Source: Athripsodes cinereus (Eukaryota > Arthropoda > Insecta > Trichoptera > Leptoceridae). Taken from it: a stretch of DNA of 64,000 nt. The notes beneath the pieces were generated by a model that was given only the letters and a program-made list of their open reading frames with translations, was not told the DNA's origin and made no database searches. Shown in pieces: positions 234 through 42,840 of the stretch (positions are counted from its first letter, which is position 1; the number at the start of each line of letters is the position of its first letter). The DNA lies in assembly GCA_947579605.1 (NCBI GenBank), contig OX388305.1, positions 29,029,542-29,093,541 on the forward strand. The letters are read 5' to 3'. The position numbers were made by a program, and so were the translations under genes.

Positions 234-945
234 CGATAAAAATACTTCCTCGATCGTACACAGAATATAGAAAGACATTGCCTGAACAAGAAGATTTATT
301 CCGAAAATAAAGATATTTGTTTCGATAAAAATATACCTATATTTCCCACGTTATTTATTAAGCTACAATATTTCGTGAGTCTAAAAATTCCTAAAGATGT
401 CTCCAAATAATAAGGAATATAAAATTTTATTTTTCCCGTAATCAATATAAGCATAATTATTATATTGATTAATTTACTTCTAACAAAACGTGTATCTGAT
501 CTTGAATTCATCATCTTATACGTGTTTGTTTTTGTATTCTTATAAAAATAAAAACAATGACACGGAACTCTATTCTTATTCACTAAATTTAATATTATTA
601 TCAAATGTACATACATTGAACTCATATTTAAGTTAAATATAATCAACCTACATATTAAATTATAATTACAACATGTACACGTACGTATATAATATGTGAT
701 ATATTATATTAGATATGCACCTACATATACCTATTATATTATTATATATCATCTATTTTCTATGCAATTAATTAATCTATGTATACACGCACACTATTCA
801 TATTATGCATATATAAAGTTGCCTATACATAGGTTATTTAATAATAATAATAACATGTAGGTGTAGTTAACAATACGCTATATACAGTTAAAGAGAAAAA
901 TACCGATACATATTCAACATCTGGATAATTTGAAATCGGTTAATG
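234..945. other. AT-rich stretch without recognisable genes
   Basis: I see only low-complexity AT-rich DNA, with TA-rich and ATA/AAT runs. The longest open frame (296-646, minus) is hydrophobic and low-complexity and resembles nothing I know. Confidence 0.6.
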
Positions 946-2610
946 ATAGAACTTATCTTATATTTTGAGGAGCTGTTTGAAAGTGGAGGCGAATATCCAA
1001 GCCAGAATAGTGAAAGGGAAAATGCGAATGAAGCAAGGGATGAAGAAATAACTATGGATGAGGTTAAGAATGCATTGAAGAAGGCGAAGAATGGCAAAGC
1101 GGTTGGGTATGATATGATCTCTACGGAATTCATCAGTCTGAGTGGGCTGAGGACTCTCGAATGGTGTCATGCACTCTTTAACCAGTGTTGGAGGGAAGGT
1201 TGCACGCCAGAAGACTGGCGAAAAGCTGTGATATGCCCTCTATACAAAGGAAAGGGGTCAAGACTAGAATGCGGGAGTTATCGGGCTATTAGTCTGCTGA
1301 GCTCGGTGGGGAAACTGTATGCAAGAATATTGATTGAAAGAGTTCGAAAAGTGACTGAGACGAATGTATGGGATGTGCAAGGTGCCTTTCAGAGTGGTAG
1401 AGGGTGTGTGGACCAGATCTTCTCCTTGCGAATGGTGACAGAGAAGCTCCTGGAGAAACACCAGAAGCTTTTATGCGCGTTTGTTGATCTAGAAAAGGCT
1501 TATGATAGAGTAGATCGTGAGAAAATGTGGCAAGTACTATCAATGTGTGGGGTGGGTAGTCGGCTAATTCGCGCCATTGCGTCCCTATATACAGGAAGTT
1601 CTGCGTGTGTTAGAGTGAACAATAACCTGTCGGAATGGTTCACATTGACAAAAGGAGTAAAACAAGGGTGCGTGATGTCGCCATGGCTTTTTAACCTATA
1701 CATTGATCATTGTATTCGTCCATTGAAAGAACTGAATGTAGGTGTTGATATGAATGGGATGAATGTAAGAGCGTTAATGTTTGCCGATGATTTGGTATTG
1801 ATGGCTGAAAGTGAAAGTGATCTACAGCGAATGATGACGTGTGTTTATGAAAATTGTGCGATTAATGGATTGAGAATGAATGCAAAAAAGACAAAAATCA
1901 TGGTGTTTGAAAGAGGAAGTGAGAGAACAGTATGCCAGGTAATGATTGACAACGAAGTGTTAGAGCAAGTTGACGAATGTGTGTACTTAGGTAGTTTGTT
2001 CACGAGAGATGGGAAGTGTGAAAGCGATATTGAAAGGAGAAAAGTTGCTGGCAATAAGGTAAATGGTGTAATCCGACCAATAATTGCAAATAGAAACATA
2101 TCCACCACAGCTAAAAGGTTGGTGCACTCTGCTATCTTAGTGCCAACACTTATGTATGCAAGTGAGACGTGGACATGGTTAAAAAAGGATGAAAGTGGCA
2201 TAAATGCAGTGGAAATGAGATCGTTGAGAAGGATGTGTGGCAAGAGTCTGAGAGATCGTGTGCGTAACAGTGATATACGAAAGGAATGTGGAATGAAAGT
2301 TGGTGTAATAACAAGGATGAATGTAAATAAGTTAAGATGGTTTGGGCACGTGGAAAGAATGAATGAGGACAGAATGAATAAGAAGATATATTTGGCTGAG
2401 AGGAATGGTGCTCGGAGACGCGGACGTCCGAGGATTAAATGGCAAGATCATTTAAATCAAATCCTACAGGACGGTCACGTGTTGAGCACATTGAACAGGA
2501 GATCATGCATGAGGAATTGTATGACAGTGACGGAAGCGAAAGATGTATGCAAGGATAGAAGGAAGTGGCGCTCGATCCTTTCTGCCTACCCCGCGAGGGA
2601 AGCGGCGTGA
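943..2610 (+). CDS. RTE reverse transcriptase, N-truncated (555 codons)
   Basis: Encodes the reverse transcriptase part of an RTE-type LINE polyprotein. Visible RT blocks are GKAVGYD near residues 51-57, AFVDLEKAYDRV at 179-190, QGCVMSPWLFNLY at 241-253 and the catalytic box FADD at 280-283. A basic GRPR segment follows, and the frame ends in SAYPAREAA. Arthropod annotations often call such proteins 'craniofacial development protein 2-like'. The ATG at 943 lies in the flanking TSD sequence, so the first six codons are host DNA and the real start is lost. No internal stop is present. Without an endonuclease domain this copy is unlikely to move by itself. Sister copies lie at 6987-7902, 28752-29225, 53245-53445 and 55862-55985. 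Confidence 0.88.
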   Translation: MIELILYFEELFESGGEYPSQNSERENANEARDEEITMDEVKNALKKAKNGKAVGYDMISTEFISLSGLRTLEWCHALFNQCWREGCTPEDWRKAVICPLYKGKGSRLECGSYRAISLLSSVGKLYARILIERVRKVTETNVWDVQGAFQSGRGCVDQIFSLRMVTEKLLEKHQKLLCAFVDLEKAYDRVDREKMWQVLSMCGVGSRLIRAIASLYTGSSACVRVNNNLSEWFTLTKGVKQGCVMSPWLFNLYIDHCIRPLKELNVGVDMNGMNVRALMFADDLVLMAESESDLQRMMTCVYENCAINGLRMNAKKTKIMVFERGSERTVCQVMIDNEVLEQVDECVYLGSLFTRDGKCESDIERRKVAGNKVNGVIRPIIANRNISTTAKRLVHSAILVPTLMYASETWTWLKKDESGINAVEMRSLRRMCGKSLRDRVRNSDIRKECGMKVGVITRMNVNKLRWFGHVERMNEDRMNKKIYLAERNGARRRGRPRIKWQDHLNQILQDGHVLSTLNRRSCMRNCMTVTEAKDVCKDRRKWRSILSAYPAREAA

Positions 2611-8040: not shown

Positions 8041-9083
8041 ATATACCTACCTTTTACATCTTCCGTATAGTTGGTATGTGTTTTTATTTCGACTTAAGCT
8101 ATTGTAACAAATATAATCATTGTATTATAAACTGTCTGTCCCGTTTATTACGAAATATAATATGTATATGCAAAATAAAAAATATCAATATTTAAAACGT
8201 ATATTAAGGGTTCCAAGAGTATTTATAGATAACCTTTTCCAGGATAACGTAAAGTGAAGAAATTACATTCAAATACATATTCTTAGTGAGAAAATAATAA
8301 TAATAGTATGGATAATGCAAGTCAGTGGTTCATCACCAAATTAACTATATTATTTATTTATTTATGGCAAGCAACAGTATTAATTATATTTTTTTATTTA
8401 TTTATGGCAGTAGTCAAATATGACATGATCTTGATAAATTGATGTCAGACCAAATTTTTAAAAAGGTATAAACATAATGTGCTTCAATCCTTGAAGATTT
8501 TAGTATTGAAAAACATTTAGGGTTGATGATTTACTGGAATCAACAAAATAGAATAAACGGAAGTCATATTTAACTCATAGTCAAGAAAGTACCTACTTTT
8601 GTTATTTTATACTTTGAAAAAAAACGTTAATGGAAAAACTTACATCGAGGTCTGAGTGTCCTCCCTTGTTGCTGTATCATACAATACGTGACTTGTATAT
8701 TTGTATTGGTATACGTATGGATGTATGCGTACATACCTATACATATTTAAGAAGTCTATTAATTAGGATTTGCGGCATTGTGTAAACGAAGATCGTGATT
8801 TTCAACGATAAATAATAAAAATAATACACAACTGGCCTGAATAATAATTCAGTATTGGTGAACGTAGACAGAATAGATAGATAAACACTACACCAGCAGC
8901 AATAGACAAATCACATTTAGCGTTATGTTTTAGTTTCATTTTCAAGAAAGTGTCAACTTTCAATCGAGTATTTTTTGCATTTACAACATTGAGTATTTTC
9001 GCTAAGAAAATTTACACTTTCTCGCAACGTCGTTTATATTCGAACGTAATGCTAAATGCGTTTTATCTACGGGCCCAGTGATG
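8041..9083. other. AT-rich stretch, nothing assigned
   Basis: No coding or repeat signal was recognised apart from short TTTA runs near 8350-8400. Confidence 0.5.
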
Positions 9084-9085
9084 TA

Positions 9086-9110
9086 GGGGAGGGCGGGGCA
9101 CACGGGTCCG
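9086..9110. repeat. Left terminal inverted repeat of the pogo-like element
   Basis: A 25-bp TIR starting GGGGAGGG just inside the TA at 9084-9085. It pairs with 11912-11936. Confidence 0.93.
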
Positions 9111-9272
9111 GGGGGGTACAGAGGTCCGGCCTTGTAGAATCAGTATCACTAGTGCCATCTATCTGACAATGCATTAATTACGTTGTCTAAACATCATCTT
9201 AGTTGTATACAAGATTGAGTGCGTTGCGGGTGACAATACGGAAGGAAAAAACAACAACGAAGAAATATTAAG

Positions 9273-9637
9273 GTAATTCTCTAAAAAAATGGCTTATTAT
9301 TGCTTATATTTACCATCTATCAACTATTTAAATTCAGTCGTATTGTTTAAACCTGATTTTAAGGTTAAATTGGATATGATTTCAAAAGGTTTCGTTTTCA
9401 TTTTGTACCAACTTTTGCGTTTAATTGTGTTTGTTCTAACATTGTCTCTGCGGGGCATAGAGGTCCATATGACAACGGGGCACACAGGACCGCGGTCCTG
9501 TGTGCCCCGTCCACTTCACTTTGTTGATTCTATTTATGTAAATATTTTTTTACAATTCATAGATTTTGGTATAATTCATTAATCTGATTTACGTGAATTA
9601 GTGAAGCAAGTTCAAGTTTTTTTTATCGTTTTTCTAG
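9273..9637 (+). other. Possible 5'-UTR intron of the pogo transposase gene
   Basis: A donor-like AAG|GTAATT at 9271-9276 and an acceptor-like polypyrimidine tract ending TTTTTCTAG at 9637 would place the start codon directly at the start of exon 2. This is motif reading only. The palindrome at 9475-9510 would fall inside the intron. Confidence 0.35.
9475..9510. promoter_or_regulatory. 36-bp perfect palindrome made of two TIR-type motifs
   Basis: Two copies of ACGGGGCACACAGGACCG meet head to head with no spacer. Each half matches the internal part of the TIR (GGGGCACAC..GG.CC), so this is probably a symmetrical transposase-binding site upstream of the transposase ORF. Function is inferred. 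Confidence 0.75.
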
Positions 9638-11536
9638 ATGGTACGTAACTACAAGAAAAAAAAACCAGAACCAGGTTGGAGTACTATTGAAATGAGCATG
9701 GCAGTTTCTGCTGTACAAAAAAAAGAACTATCAGCTAGGCAGGCATCTCAAAAGTATGGAGTTCCAAAAACTTGCCTTTTGCGCAGGTTAAAAAAAGGAT
9801 CAGTTAGCGGCCCACGAAATGACAACTATAAACCGGTTTTCTCGAAAGAGCAAGAAAAAGAATTGGTTTCTCATGTTCTCGATTTAGAATCCAAATTCTA
9901 CGGCTTGACACCTCAAGATGTCAGAAGAGTAGCATTTGATCTAGCAGAAAAGTTGAAACTATCAAATAATTTCAACAAAGTAAAAGGTGTCGCTGGGAAA
10001 GACTGGCTCAATGGCTTTCGAATGAGAAATCCAGAAGTCACCATAAGAGCTCCTGAAGCTACGAGTGTATCAAGAGCTGCGGCATTCAACAAAGTGCAAA
10101 TTAAGAAGTTCTATGACATTCTGAGTTCTGTGATGGAAAAACATAATTTTGGACCAGATCAAGTGTTCAACGCCGATGAAACAGGTGTGAATACTGTACC
10201 GAAACCAAAAAAGATTATCGCCAGGACCGGCCGCAAACAAGTTGGTCGCATTGTAAGTGCCGAACGTGGATTTAACATAACGGTCACTTGCGCTATGTCA
10301 GCGACTGGTCAGTATATTCCTCCATTCTTTCTCTTCCCTCGACAGCGCATGTCACCATTATTTATGAAAGGAAGTCCTGCAGGATCAAAAGGTTTTGCGA
10401 ACAGCAGTGGTTGGATGGATTCCGAACATTTTGTCAAGTACTTAGAGCATTTCGCCGAGTTTGCTAAGCCAACCGAAAGCAAAAAAATTTTGCTGATAAT
10501 TGACAACCACGCGAGCCATAGAACTCTCGAGGCCATAACGTTTGCTCGAGAAAATAATATAATAATGATTTCTTTACCTCCACACACAAGCCATAGACTT
10601 CAGCCCTTGGATTGCACCTTCTATGGGCCATTGAAAGCACAACATTCTCACGAGTGTGATTTATGGATGACAAATCACCCAGCACAAAGAATAACAATTT
10701 ACGACATAGTCGAAATTTTTGGAAAAGCATTTGTTCGAGCAGCCACGATGGAAAAAGCAATTAAAGGTTTTAATGTGACGGGGATAATCCCGTTTGATCC
10801 GAATCATTTCACGGACGAAGACTTCCTTCCATCATTAGTAACGGAAGTGCCACTAACAACAGGCGACGAACCTCTGACCCCAATGAATGTGGAAGAAATC
10901 ACAACAGACCTTCAATCAAAAAACGCTATTCAGGTAACAGATGCTCAACTAGCTGCAAACATCCTGGAACAAGGAGAATGCCACCCTTCATCAGTCAGTT
11001 TGTATACCGCCTTACATCAGCCACCAGTTGACATCATAGAAAAAACTAGCGACCCTGCCTTAATCAATTTAAATTCCGTGCATCTGCCATCGACAAGTTT
11101 CCAAGATGCAACTGTTTTTAAAAAATGTTTGTTTCAAGTTTCTCCTAAACCCATATCTAATAGATCATCTAAGAAATCTAATAATCGAAAACAAAAAACG
11201 CAGCATGCTGAAGAACTAACTGGATCACCTTTTAAAAACCAAAAGGAAACTGAAGAGCAAGAAAAGAAAAGAAAAGCTGTAATAGCTGATTTTAAAATGA
11301 AGAAGAAAAAAGTCCAGAAAGGCACAAAGAAAGTTATCAATAATAAAAAAGCTGAGTCTTCTGACAATGACTCTGAAGAAGATACGAATCCTATGTGTAT
11401 TTACTGCTGTGGAAGATTTCTTCAATCCAAGCCTAACGAAGGGTGGATCCAATGCCAAAAATGCAAAGGGTGGGCACATGACTTATGCGCTGGTGCTGAT
11501 GAGGAAGACAATTATATAACGTGTCCAAAATGTTAA
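9638..11536 (+). CDS. Pogo/Tigger-like transposase with C-terminal PHD-like finger (632 aa)
   Basis: DNA transposase that would bind the TIRs and perform DDE/D cut-and-paste into TA sites in the nucleus. The order is: basic N terminus; psq-type helix-turn-helix at about residues 14-58 (LSARQASQKYGVPKTCLLRR); a second CENP-B-like DNA-binding region at about 70-135; and a DDE_1 catalytic core with D180 (NADETG), D289 (LLIIDNHASH) and D325 (LQPLDCTFYG), the DDD triad of pogo proteins. A lysine-rich linker at about 540-585 then leads to a C4HC3 zinc finger: CIYC, WIQCQKC, WAHDLC, YITCPKC at about 587-632. There are no internal stops. The ATG follows a TTTTTCTAG that may be a splice acceptor. It resembles jerky/Tigger-derived proteins, but the flanking TIRs and TA show a transposon and not a domesticated gene. 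Confidence 0.92.
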   Translation: MVRNYKKKKPEPGWSTIEMSMAVSAVQKKELSARQASQKYGVPKTCLLRRLKKGSVSGPRNDNYKPVFSKEQEKELVSHVLDLESKFYGLTPQDVRRVAFDLAEKLKLSNNFNKVKGVAGKDWLNGFRMRNPEVTIRAPEATSVSRAAAFNKVQIKKFYDILSSVMEKHNFGPDQVFNADETGVNTVPKPKKIIARTGRKQVGRIVSAERGFNITVTCAMSATGQYIPPFFLFPRQRMSPLFMKGSPAGSKGFANSSGWMDSEHFVKYLEHFAEFAKPTESKKILLIIDNHASHRTLEAITFARENNIIMISLPPHTSHRLQPLDCTFYGPLKAQHSHECDLWMTNHPAQRITIYDIVEIFGKAFVRAATMEKAIKGFNVTGIIPFDPNHFTDEDFLPSLVTEVPLTTGDEPLTPMNVEEITTDLQSKNAIQVTDAQLAANILEQGECHPSSVSLYTALHQPPVDIIEKTSDPALINLNSVHLPSTSFQDATVFKKCLFQVSPKPISNRSSKKSNNRKQKTQHAEELTGSPFKNQKETEEQEKKRKAVIADFKMKKKKVQKGTKKVINNKKAESSDNDSEEDTNPMCIYCCGRFLQSKPNEGWIQCQKCKGWAHDLCAGADEEDNYITCPKC

Positions 11537-11715
11537 TACTTTCTTTTTCTTTTATTGTTTTTCTATATTTTCCTGTTTCATATCATTTCTACGTTATATG
11601 GAATATAACGTGTGCAAAATGTTTATTTAATAAACCTTTCAAAACAAATTAAACATGTTTGATTTTCCATTACACACATTTATCTTACATATGGGACACA
11701 TAGGACCACACGTGA

Positions 11716-11748
11716 ACCTTTGTGCCCCACCGGATGGGGCACAAAGGT
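11716..11748. promoter_or_regulatory. 3' subterminal inverted pair of TIR-type motifs
   Basis: ACCTTTGTGCCCC (11716-11728) and GGGGCACAAAGGT (11736-11748) are exact reverse complements with a 7-bp spacer. They repeat the TIR core. A further degenerate copy (GGGACACATAGGACC) lies just upstream, near 11693. Confidence 0.75.
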
Positions 11749-11911
11749 CCATATACCATTTTTGACATTCTCGGTTTTATACAAAAAACCTATGAAACGT
11801 TGTTTAATTCAATATAATTAGTAGTAACAGCATAGCATATAAATGCTTTTTAGCAAAATGCGATTGACATAGCATCAATATATCTTAGTATATTTACCAA
11901 CAACAGTTAAG

Positions 11912-11936
11912 CGGACCCGTGTGCCCCACTCTCCCC
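11912..11936. repeat. Right terminal inverted repeat of the pogo-like element
   Basis: Ends ...CTCTCCCC immediately before the TA at 11937-11938. It is the reverse complement of 9086-9110 with two mismatches. Confidence 0.93.
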
Positions 11937-11938
11937 TA

Positions 11939-31912: not shown

Positions 31913-33638
31913 TATATAATGAGTTACAATCCATTGGATTGGTCTGCAACGAGTTTGGTTTTTCTTCTCCATTCGTCTCTATTCTCCGCCAGTCTTTTCA
32001 GCTCTACGTATGAGCCACAGTTCATATCACTCTTCAGTTGGTCCATATATGCGTCTCTTGGTCGGCCTCTGCCATTTGTCCCCTCGGTCTTACCCTCCGC
32101 GATGGCTATGAGTAGTCCTGGGTGCCTGATGTTGTGGCCAATCCAGTTAGCTCGTTGTTGGCTGATTCTCTTAAGGAGTTGCCTTTTTTCGCCTACCCTG
32201 GTTAATACTTCTTCGTTTTCGACGTGCTCCGACCAATGGATCTTAAGCATGCGTCTGTAGCACCACATTTCAAAGGCCGCCAACCGTCCGCTTTCACTCT
32301 TGCTGATGGTCCATGTCTCACAACCATAAAGCAGAATGCTCCATACAAAGGCTTTAGTAAGGTTCTTCCTTACGCTTAAGCCGATATTTGGGGATTCCAA
32401 TATCTTCGATTTTTTGTTGAAGGCAATCCTTGCCTGGTTTATTCTGCTTACGATTTCTGCTTTGGAGCGTCCATCCTGGTTTATTCTACTGCCCAGGTAC
32501 ACGAATTCACTTACTTGTTTGATGCTCACTCCATTTATGGCAATGTTCGCAGTCGCTTCCTCTCTTCCAACGACCATACATTTTGTTTTTTCTTTATTTA
32601 TTTTCATGTTGTACTTTGACAACAGTATACTTTCCATTTTTCCTAAGGCTTCGTTCAGCTCCATCTCGGAGTCTGCGAGCAGTGCTATGTCGTCAGCATA
32701 TCTTATCATGTCGACCTTTTTCCCATTTATTTTTACTCCTGTCCAGTTCTTCATTTCTTCTCTCAGTTCATCAATGGCTCGCTGTATATAGCAGTTAAAG
32801 AGAGCTGGCGACATTGAGCATCCTTGTCTTACGCCTTGTTCGACCCTTGCTTCTGCACAGCTCTCTCCGCTTTTAATCACAGCCATTTCGTTCTTGTATA
32901 AGCTCCAGATTGCTCTTCTGTCTTTATAACTCATTCCTATCTGGTTGAGGGTGTTAAAAAGTTGTTCCCATTCTACTTTATCGAATGCTTTTTCAAGGTC
33001 GATGAATGCTATGTATGTGTTTTTATTAATTGCTATTCTCTTTTCTAGAGTAAGTCTGAGACTCAGGATTGCATCTCTTGTACCTGTCTCTTTGCGGAAT
33101 CCAAATTGATCTTCTGTAAGTGTTTCGTTTATTTTATTTTCCGCCCTTTTCATTATAATGTTGGTGAGTATCTTAGAAGCGTGTGATATCATGCTTAAGG
33201 TTCTGTGTTGTTCGCACTTTGTAGTGCCTGCTTTCTTAGGAAGCGCTCGTATCAGACATTTGGCAAAGTCCTCAGGTATCTCTCCTGTGTCATATATTTT
33301 GCAGACAAGCTTATACAATGTATCGAGCATGCCTTTTCCCGCGCATTTAAGCAGCTCTGATGGAATCAGGTCAATACCTGGTGCTTTGCCGTCTTTCAAC
33401 TTTGCTAAGGCAATATCAAATTCACTTCTTAAGATGTCATCTCCATTATTTTCTACGTCATATTCTGCTTCTAGTGCTTTGCTTTCTTGGACTATGTTCT
33501 TTCCTTTGTATAATTGTTCTAGGTATTCTTTCCATCTTTTTACGATCAATTCGTCCTCAAACAGCAGTTTGCCGTTTTTATCTTGTATAGCACATCGTGG
33601 CTGTGTTTTGTCATTGAAGAAATTCTTTACTTCAGAGT
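31913..33638 (-). mobile_element. LINE-B (endonuclease-RT type), 5'-truncated, 12-bp TSD
   Basis: A 1726-bp insertion between exact copies of ATTAACGAACTA (31901-31912 and 33639-33650). The sense strand is minus. The 5' end starts within the coding frame, so the endonuclease part is missing. The 3' UTR is very short and ends in a TA-rich tail. A 140-bp relative is at 19502-19645. The open frame and perfect TSD point to a young copy. Confidence 0.9.
31924..33549 (-). CDS. LINE-B reverse transcriptase, N-truncated (541 codons)
   Basis: Reverse transcriptase of a non-LTR retrotransposon, of the kind often annotated as 'endonuclease-reverse transcriptase'. RT blocks: APGIDLIPSELL at about 56-67, EDQFGFRKETGTRDAI at 146-161, AFIDLEKAFDKV at 181-192, VRQGCSMSPALFNCY at 240-254 and the catalytic RYADD at 283-287. 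A C-terminal YGCETWT region and GRGRPRDAYMDQLKSD follow. The frame continues about 27 codons upstream of 33549 with no ATG (...QPRCAIQDKNGKLLFEDE), so the listed first residue is not a true start. No internal stop. It is only distantly related to the RTE copies in this window. Confidence 0.88.
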   Translation of the reverse strand: MIVKRWKEYLEQLYKGKNIVQESKALEAEYDVENNGDDILRSEFDIALAKLKDGKAPGIDLIPSELLKCAGKGMLDTLYKLVCKIYDTGEIPEDFAKCLIRALPKKAGTTKCEQHRTLSMISHASKILTNIIMKRAENKINETLTEDQFGFRKETGTRDAILSLRLTLEKRIAINKNTYIAFIDLEKAFDKVEWEQLFNTLNQIGMSYKDRRAIWSLYKNEMAVIKSGESCAEARVEQGVRQGCSMSPALFNCYIQRAIDELREEMKNWTGVKINGKKVDMIRYADDIALLADSEMELNEALGKMESILLSKYNMKINKEKTKCMVVGREEATANIAINGVSIKQVSEFVYLGSRINQDGRSKAEIVSRINQARIAFNKKSKILESPNIGLSVRKNLTKAFVWSILLYGCETWTISKSESGRLAAFEMWCYRRMLKIHWSEHVENEEVLTRVGEKRQLLKRISQQRANWIGHNIRHPGLLIAIAEGKTEGTNGRGRPRDAYMDQLKSDMNCGSYVELKRLAENRDEWRRKTKLVADQSNGL

Positions 33639-41708: not shown

Positions 41709-42727
41709 TCAAAAACATTTTGAGCAAAAGAAGTTGTAAAGACCTTTCTTTCCACATGACTCATGGGCCCACATTTGTACTTTTTTTACTTTTTATATTA
41801 TTGACATACTTTACATTTCATCCAATCCACAGCACTTTGTGAATAGTCCTCATTACATTCTGGACAAGAATTATTTTCAGTTATCTTATCCGCATTCTTT
41901 ACAGGTATTGCCATGGTTCTTTTTCTTTTTCGAGGTATTACGATTTCTTCACCAGAACTGGTATCTAAAGAATCCGAATCGTGTAAAGAAGTTCTTTCCT
42001 CTAGACAAGTTTCGGAATCATTATCGGCATACAGTTGTCTTTTTGTGCTTTTAGCAGTTTTTCTTTGGTTTTTATTTTCTGAATTTCTTTTTGTTTTTCC
42101 TTTACGTTTTCGTTCCATTTCCAAGAGCTTGTCTTTTTCGGGGGTAATCCGTAATTATCGATGTCCTTCCTTTGCGTTTGTTAGGTTGGCCTGTTTTTCT
42201 TGCACCAGCTTTTGGAAAAGGTCGTACATCCTCGGGAGATTTTAAGCGCCTGGGCGACAGAGAAGAAGTTGTAGATTGTACTTCTTAAAGATCTGGAGAT
42301 GTTAAGAGCCTGGGCGACTGTGAAGATGTTGTAGGTCGTATCTCAGAAGGATCTTGTCTATCAGTAACATTTGAGCATTAAAATCCTCTTGAGTGAAATT
42401 ATTTCGGTTAAAGGGATATATCCCAGTTTTACGGAATCCACTTGTGATATTTTGTATGTTGAATGCTGCCATAAAGGCATCGTTAGCCAACTGTGCTACC
42501 TGGTATATTGTTACGGTTTTGCTGGGATTTGATAAAATCCAGTCGTTCATGGAAACTCTATATCGAGATTTAATTTTTATAATAATTCTTCCTAAGTATG
42601 TCCTTCCTATGTTAAAAGACAAAGCTGCAGATCTAACTCTTACTTTTTTCACTAAAACTTCTTTGACAGCATTCTCTATATCACATTTGGACGGACGAAT
42701 TCTTTTAGATTTGGTTGAATTATTCAT
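41709..42727 (-). pseudogene. Deleted pogo transposase: HTH joined to C terminus
   Basis: The minus-strand frame from 42727 starts MNNSTKSKRIRPS and has a psq-like helix-turn-helix (VRVRSAALSFNIGRTYLGRI). It then jumps directly to NDWILSNPSKTVTIYQVAQL and GFRKTGIYPFNRNNFTQEDF. In the intact element these correspond to residues near 50 and near 342-396, so about 290 residues including all three catalytic aspartates are gone. A later frame (42124-41798) has the acidic/basic linker and CPEC...WMKCKVC; after a stop and frame change the finger ends WAHESC...FCSKCF (stop near 41709). So the PHD-like finger is present but broken. It cannot be catalytically active. Confidence 0.82.
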
Positions 42728-42840
42728 TGTTTTGGTAAGTAAGTACAAATCTGCAAAAAACCACAAGAAATAAATGAAATCAAGTTTAAAATAAAAAGAT
42801 CACTTCTACATAAGAACGTCGTGATGAAAGGGCCATGCAT

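What the first reader, a model, noticed from the sequence alone, without database searches (positions are those of the whole stretch)
9086..11936. Structurally intact pogo-like transposon encoding a DDD transposase with a PHD-like finger
Seen: TA-flanked 25-bp TIRs with two mismatches, one uninterrupted 632-codon frame, D180/D289/D325, an N-terminal psq-type HTH and a C4HC3 finger at the extreme C terminus. Known: pogo/Tigger transposases combine HTH and DDE_1 domains, and PHD fingers often read histone tails. Inferred: the finger may steer integration or binding to a chromatin state, and the copy may be active. Every other DNA transposon in the window is broken or non-autonomous.
Basis: partly seen in the sequence, partly recalled or inferred. 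Interest (0 to 1): 0.75.

Follow-up and report, generated by a model that had tools for sequence, protein, structure and literature searches.

The report
Recently mobile pogo-like transposon with PHD finger
This is a jumping gene, probably mobile until recently, whose cutting enzyme ends in a finger of the kind that reads histone marks, and whose DNA ends carry likely enzyme-docking sites at fixed distances that related families in the same genome share although their docking sequences differ.

Summary
Window 9086-11936 is a 2851-bp TA-flanked element with 25-bp TIRs (2 mismatches) and one 632-codon DD35D transposase: HTH_psq, HTH_Tnp_Tc5, DDE_1 and a C-terminal C4HC3 finger. The finger is a PHD finger by profile and predicted fold, with aromatic residues at three of the four recalled BPTF cage positions. 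It is a clade trait: 170 of 192 listed relatives of at least 570 aa carry it. The 716-Mb host genome holds four full-length copies (98.8-100% identical, three open), one deleted copy and one fragment: a mobile family, not a domesticated gene.

New here: ten PHD-pogo families of this genome repeat their own TIR core at the same distances from the ends (left ~10, 28, 367, 390, 410; right ~23, 201, 221); 54 of 70 sites against 0.4 in shuffles, while the cores differ. I read this as a fixed transposase-binding scaffold, possibly nucleosome-sized. Chromatin steering by the finger remains inference. A variant of a known superfamily, not described in the papers I searched.

The parts
9086..11936 (+). 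complete transposon, 2851 bp
   Evidence: TIRs, TA flanks and near-identical copies elsewhere that end at the same bases
9084..9085 (.). TA target-site duplication, left
11937..11938 (.). TA target-site duplication, right
9086..9110 (+). left TIR, 25 bp
   Evidence: I1: 92% complementary
11912..11936 (-). right TIR, 25 bp
   Evidence: I1
9095..9109 (+). outer core site 1 (L10)
9113..9127 (+). outer core site 2 (L28)
   Evidence: at L26-29 in 8 of 10 families
9452..9466 (+). inner core site (L367)
   Evidence: at L364-371 in 9 of 10 families
9477..9491 (+). inner core site (L392), first arm of the palindrome
   Evidence: at L380-397 in 7 of 10 families
9494..9508 (-). inner inverted core site (L410), second arm of the palindrome
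   Evidence: at L384-416 in 9 of 10 families
9475..9510 (.). perfect 36-bp palindrome
   Evidence: I4
11693..11707 (+). weak inner core site (R244, 4 mismatches)
11714..11728 (-). inner core site (R222)
   Evidence: at R218-226 in 10 of 10 families
11736..11750 (+). inner core site (R201)
   Evidence: at R198-205 in 6 of 10 families
11713..11751 (.). imperfect palindrome of two core sites
   Evidence: I8
11913..11927 (-). outer core site of the right end (R23)
9638..11536 (+). transposase ORF, 632 aa, no stop inside
9689..9799 (+). HTH_psq, residues 18-54
   Evidence: 7.3e-9
9845..10036 (+). HTH_Tnp_Tc5-like, residues 70-133
   Evidence: 4.6e-4, just under the cut-off; helices in the model
10175..10612 (+). 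DDD catalytic residues D180 (10175-10177), D289 (10502-10504), D325 (10610-10612) and the stretch between
   Evidence: DDE_1 4.2e-19 over residues 216-374; invariant; Mos1 and SETMAR fold match
11396..11533 (+). PHD finger, residues 587-632; cage-position residues F594, W603, W612
9130..9445 (.). left spacer (element positions 45-360): length kept, hardly any shared sequence between families
11752..11906 (.). right spacer (R185-R31): length kept

Best explanation
An autonomous cut-and-paste DNA transposon of the pogo superfamily (DD35D, Fot-like by domain make-up) that moved recently in this genome. SHOWN from sequence: TA-flanked near-identical copies; an intact transposase with two HTH domains, an RNase-H-like DDD core and a PHD finger resembling H3K4me readers; an array of TIR-core sites whose distances from the ends are kept across ten families while the core itself changes from family to family. 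INFERRED: the HTH domains bind the core sites; several subunits on outer and inner sites bring the ends together with ~325 bp (left) and ~164 bp (right) of DNA folded or wrapped between them; the DDD core cuts at the TIRs and inserts at TA; the PHD finger, on a basic flexible linker, contacts an H3 tail, most likely unmodified or K4-methylated, tethering the complex to chromatin. Whether the tether acts on the donor or on the target cannot be told here.
For: Anatomy. Copies: four full-length counting the window's (100, 99.75, 99.68, 98.8% identical), one deleted, one 113-bp fragment; all 15 first-look candidates scored; the 11 TIR hits in the genome all belong to these six places, reversed-pattern control 0. 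PHD: a profile of 61 fingers finds PHD chains of the PDB, best 3.4e-7; 60 of 61 fingers match PF00628 at 0.01 or better; the 50 rows shown by Foldseek and by VIA-align are, by title or recalled content, PHD-containing chains, led by AL3, TAF3, BPTF, MLL1 and Pygo entries on methylated H3. Cage positions in the 176 fingers of 238 listed relatives: W at Cys4+3 in 176, aromatic at Cys3-3 in 175, aromatic at Cys2+3/+4 in 168, all three in 167. Finger net charge below zero in 158 of 176, mean -4.7. Layout: 54 of 70 family-by-site cells filled, 200 shuffles mean 0.37 and maximum 3; randomly displaced windows mean 3.6, maximum 9; cores of other families fill 38 of 630. Where found, L367, R221 and R201 have sd 1.8, 1.9 and 1.8 bp, against 62 for the ATG position and 181 for the stop-to-end distance. 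The ten families are scattered among relatives from beetles, a wasp, an aphid, a spider, a tunicate and Lepidoptera.
Confidence: 0.72

Rival explanations
1. The PHD-like finger is a DNA-binding part that helps recognise the transposon ends, as the cysteine-rich domain of piggyBac does, and does not read histones.
For: piggyBac's CRD has a PHD-like cross-brace fold and binds a repeated motif at the transposon ends (PMC8086355, passages seen); here too the ends carry a repeated motif. The window's own finger is nearly neutral (net -1) and follows a basic linker.
Against: Mean net charge of 176 fingers is -4.7 (158 negative); the cage positions are kept in 167 of 176, which DNA binding would not require; the closest folds are H3K4me readers.
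Confidence: 0.2
2. The inner sites are an operator or promoter array for self-regulation of the transposase gene, not part of the cutting complex.
For: On the left they lie about 130-186 bp upstream of the ATG, and palindromic pairs suit dimer binding.
Against: The right end carries a matching inner array downstream of the gene (R201, R221). Distances are kept to the ends (sd about 1.9 bp where found) and not to the ATG (sd 62 bp).
Confidence: 0.15
3. The shared layout is only shared ancestry of the end sequence, without function of the spacing.
For: The families are related (38-47% protein identity to the window's); spacer identity is slightly above shuffled (left 0.309 against 0.284, right 0.355 against 0.323).
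Against: The core motifs differ (mean 5.7 of 14 bases shared; 38 of 630 cross matches, 16 of them within the two sister pairs) and the spacers hardly align, yet their lengths stay within a few bp while other non-coding lengths drift by tens to hundreds of bp.
Confidence: 0.1
4. A domesticated host gene, no longer a transposon.
For: The reading frame is intact.
Against: TIRs and TA flanks, and three open copies at unrelated sites in one genome.
Confidence: 0.02

Closest known systems
Fot/Fot-like family of the pogo superfamily (Gao et al. 2020, PMC7386202; section 8 read, otherwise passages)
   Same: DD35D, HTH_psq plus HTH_Tnp_Tc5, TA duplication among the allowed types
   Different: 'PHD' occurs 0 times in that main text and section 8 describes no inner site array; most Fot-like TIRs are given as 40-60 bp, here 25 bp; supplements not seen
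Passer and Tigger families of pogo (PMC9976928, passages; PMC7386202)
   Same: TA duplication, HTH plus DDE domain, short TIRs and DD35D in Passer
   Different: 'PHD' occurs 0 times in the main text of PMC9976928; the one finger-less Tigger-like family checked here has its repeats mostly within ~135 bp of the ends, with only weaker hits further in (L331-343, R242-246, R369), so it is not a clean contrast
Rehavkus (outgroup to Mutator elements; PMC6446971, passages)
   Same: transposase with a PHD finger
   Different: another superfamily, 9-bp duplication, minisatellite, per that paper
piggyBac, PiggyMac and Tpb2 cysteine-rich domains (PMC8086355, passages)
   Same: C-terminal cross-brace zinc finger in a transposase; binds end repeats (piggyBac) or the H3 tail (PiggyMac weakly, Tpb2)
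   Different: piggyBac-type transposase (TTAA target recalled); PiggyMac's domain is not a canonical PHD per that paper
RAG1-RAG2 / TransibVDJ (PMC4411706, passages)
   Same: a DDE-type recombinase working with a PHD finger
   Different: the finger sits on the partner protein RAG2, here on the transposase itself; RAG2's H3K4me3 reading is recalled, from no call
Sleeping Beauty IR/DR ends (PMC7827188, passages)
   Same: outer and inner transposase sites at each end, all four needed for transposition
   Different: there ~220-bp TIRs with two sites per end; here 25-bp TIRs, up to five sites on the left at about double the right-end distance, inverted inner pairs

Membership tests
pogo superfamily | DDxD catalytic triad in a DDE_1 domain | tested here: met
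   DDE_1 4.2e-19; D180, D289, D325 invariant in 77 rows
pogo superfamily | N-terminal HTH DNA-binding domain(s) | tested here: met
   HTH_psq 7.3e-9; Tc5-type 20.6 bits, just under the cut-off
pogo superfamily | TIRs with TA-type duplication | tested here: met
   TA also flanks the copy read of each of the ten families (my cut is off by one base in F578 and two in F626 at the right end)
Fot-like family | DD35D with HTH_psq and/or HTH_Tnp_Tc5 | tested here: met
   criteria as in PMC7386202 section 8
Fot-like family | place in the transposase tree with described Fot-like elements | not tested
   no described Fot-like references were included in the tree
Fot-like family | TIR of 40-60 bp (said of most, so not strictly defining) | tested here: inconclusive
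   25 bp here
PHD finger | C4HC3 ligands with PHD spacing | tested here: met
   C587 C590 C606 C609 H614 C617 C629 C632, invariant in the finger-selected alignment; Cys4-His gap is 4 in 94 of 94 fingers
PHD finger | PHD fold | tested here: met
PHD finger | profile score over Pfam's curated cut-off (a curator's line, not a defining feature; the finger is still filed as PHD on ligands, fold and profile) | tested here: not met
   13.1 bits whole protein, 22.7 finger alone, cut-off 24; 60 of 61 fingers match at E 0.01 or better
H3K4me3-reading PHD | aromatic cage | tested here: inconclusive
   three of four BPTF positions (recalled) aromatic by alignment; side-chain geometry not examined
H3K4me3-reading PHD | binding to H3K4me3 peptide | not testable with these tools
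   needs a binding assay
domesticated transposase gene | single-copy gene without transposon ends | tested here: not met
   four full-length copies with ends

The most novel reading that the evidence does not exclude
The spacers are nucleosome-sized: ~164 bp of free DNA between outer and first inner site on the right (in the six families with the R201 site; ~184 in the other four) and ~325 bp, 1.98 times as much, on the left. The transposase may assemble over one wrapped nucleosome at the right end and two at the left, with its PHD fingers sampling the H3 tails of those very nucleosomes, so that excision is licensed by the chromatin state of the donor element (for instance K4-methylated, not silenced) and not only aimed at a target. 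A 10.25-bp A/T-dinucleotide rhythm in the left spacers (0 of 200 shuffles as strong; 0.8% of random sets of ten genomic pieces; 7 of 200 with AA/TT/TA alone) fits; the right spacers do not show it (99 of 200; 20 of 200 with AA/TT/TA) and not every family does.
Probability: 0.14. Interest if true: 0.88.

Novelty: new variant of a known kind. Interest (0 to 1): 0.62.

Why it matters
A clade of animal cut-and-paste transposons seems to carry its own histone-reader module, a one-protein parallel to RAG1 plus RAG2. Near-identical copies with open frames make activity testable at once. The end layout, kept in families whose binding motifs differ, separates spacing from sequence and gives a natural series for asking whether transposon ends are built around nucleosomes. 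As at least ten such families coexist, with near-identical copies, the host is also a good system for comparing insertion sites.

Full report
What is there. The element runs from 9086 to 11936 (2851 bp) between TA dinucleotides; its 25-bp ends differ at two positions. One frame of 632 codons (9638-11536) is open. Pfam finds HTH_psq, a borderline HTH_Tnp_Tc5 and DDE_1; D180, D289 and D325 are invariant among 77 aligned proteins, with 35 residues between the last two. The predicted structure is confident over both HTH regions, most of the catalytic core and the finger, and not over 413-487 and 567-580; its best fold matches are Mos1 and SETMAR transposase structures.

How common the finger is. 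Two protein searches found 369 and 475 relatives and listed the best 120 each, 238 different proteins. 176 of 238 have the C4HC3 pattern, 170 of 192 among those of at least 570 aa. Of the 22 long exceptions six break off or are mis-modelled inside the finger (P0030, P0056, P0059, P0065, P0211, P0214), three stop before it (P0084, P0179, P0233), three have deviant cysteine patterns (P0093, P0106, P0237) and ten end in other tails (my reading of the tails printed). In the finger-selected alignment the linker 400-489 has 0.16 mean column identity against 0.48 for the finger and 0.59 for the core.

Copies in the genome. The window lies in a 716-Mb, 160-contig genome. With the element as query all 15 candidates were scored: four full-length copies, one deleted copy with an insertion, and a 113-bp right end. 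Identities to the window copy are 99.75, 99.68 and 98.8%. Three have open 632-codon frames, one is broken. Flanks differ and carry TA; one copy is best read as having lost a G from its left TIR. The 11 TIR matches in the genome all belong to these six places. So the element moved recently, and no MITEs of it were found. No empty site was shown.

A radiation. The same genome holds further PHD-pogo families at 38-47% protein identity to the window's (70 of 1342 candidates scored). I read copies of nine; in each a second copy is at least 99.1% identical over the stretch compared. The 626-aa family has 43 of the 150 scored DDE_1 rows (801 candidates). In a tree of 34 transposases (first 430 residues, one outgroup row) the ten families fall among relatives from beetles, a wasp, an aphid, a spider, a tunicate and Lepidoptera; 8 changes of the label 'own' are needed, 7 forced by starred branches, no more clustered than shuffled labels; 11 of 31 inner branches are open.

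The end layout. The window element carries its TIR core nine times, only outside the ORF (8 within 1 mismatch of a degenerate motif, 0.02 expected in the window). I took one copy of each of ten families, cut at copy boundaries, and searched each with its own 14-base core, up to 4 mismatches. Besides the outer site at L10 that defines the core, sites recur at L26-29 (8 of 10), L364-371 (9 of 10), L380-397 (7 of 10) and, inverted, L384-416 (9 of 10), and from the right end at 198-205 (6 of 10), 218-226 (10 of 10) and 238-248 (5 of 10): 54 of 70 cells, against a mean of 0.37 and a maximum of 3 in 200 shuffles, and a mean of 3.6 and a maximum of 9 with displaced windows. The outer right site is found at R22-25 in 9 of 10. 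Cores of other families fill 38 of 630 cells, 16 of these within the two sister pairs F578/F606 and F637/F618. The layout was first seen in six families and then met in four more (F619 3, F578 3, F626 7 and F606 6 of 7 sites), though the exact windows were set after all ten were seen. Where found, L367 (9 families), R221 (10) and R201 (6) have standard deviations of 1.8, 1.9 and 1.8 bp as cut, while the ATG position and stop-to-end distance vary by 62 and 181. Spacers hardly align (left identity 0.309 against 0.284 shuffled, right 0.355 against 0.323). One finger-less Tigger-like family of the same genome has its repeats mostly near its ends, but weaker hits lie further in; it is a thin and unclean control, so whether the array goes with the finger is open. 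This did not change my odds, which rest on the ten families.

Reading. Distances are kept while sequence differs, so I infer selection on geometry and a synaptic complex with several transposase subunits per end, like Sleeping Beauty's IR/DR in principle (PMC7827188, passages), but asymmetric. Free DNA between sites is 325 bp on the left (position 42 to 366) and 164 bp on the right (R24 to R187, in the six families with R201), a ratio of 1.98, close to two and one nucleosomes. The left spacers show a 10.25-bp A/T rhythm, the right ones do not. Together with a histone-reader finger this makes a nucleosome-built complex a testable but unproven idea.

Standing. As an element it is a new member of the pogo superfamily, Fot-like by domains; its place in a tree with described Fot-like elements was not tested. 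The PHD finger and the layout make it a variant that I found in no paper searched; automatic annotation already labels some relatives as PHD-type, and a PHD finger in a transposase has a precedent in Rehavkus (PMC6446971, passages).

Noticed in passing
window 42302-42766, minus strand: A 154-aa frame looks by eye like a pogo-type HTH start joined to the C-terminal part of a DDE_1 domain, as if the catalytic core were deleted; Pfam finds no support.
   Followed up: partly
window about 8966-9079: The left flank of the element belongs to a palindromic repeat with dozens of diverged copies in the genome.
   Followed up: no
L004, corresponding to window 9478-9503: The deleted copy on C14 has lost 26 bp inside the 36-bp palindrome, as expected of an unstable hairpin, besides other losses and a 188-bp insertion.
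   Followed up: no
own genome, rows: A finger-less Tigger-like family (513 aa from ATG) has 28 rows with a 521-aa frame and nearly equal scores; two copies compared are 99.97% identical over 2817 bp.
   Followed up: partly
L044, L045 (626-aa family): Its protein is 99% identical to the protein of an unnamed assembled contig and 67% to one of Spodoptera frugiperda; horizontal transfer was not tested.
   Followed up: no
L006 and L020: One copy of the 619-aa family carries an insertion of about 1 kb in its left non-coding part, with a frame that looks by eye like part of a reverse transcriptase.
   Followed up: no
window 943-2610 plus and 31924-33549 minus: Two long open frames (555 and 541 aa) that look by eye like LINE reverse transcriptases.
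   Followed up: no
ten families, element positions 45-360: A/T dinucleotides repeat with a period of about 10.25 bp in the left spacers but not in the right ones.
   Followed up: partly
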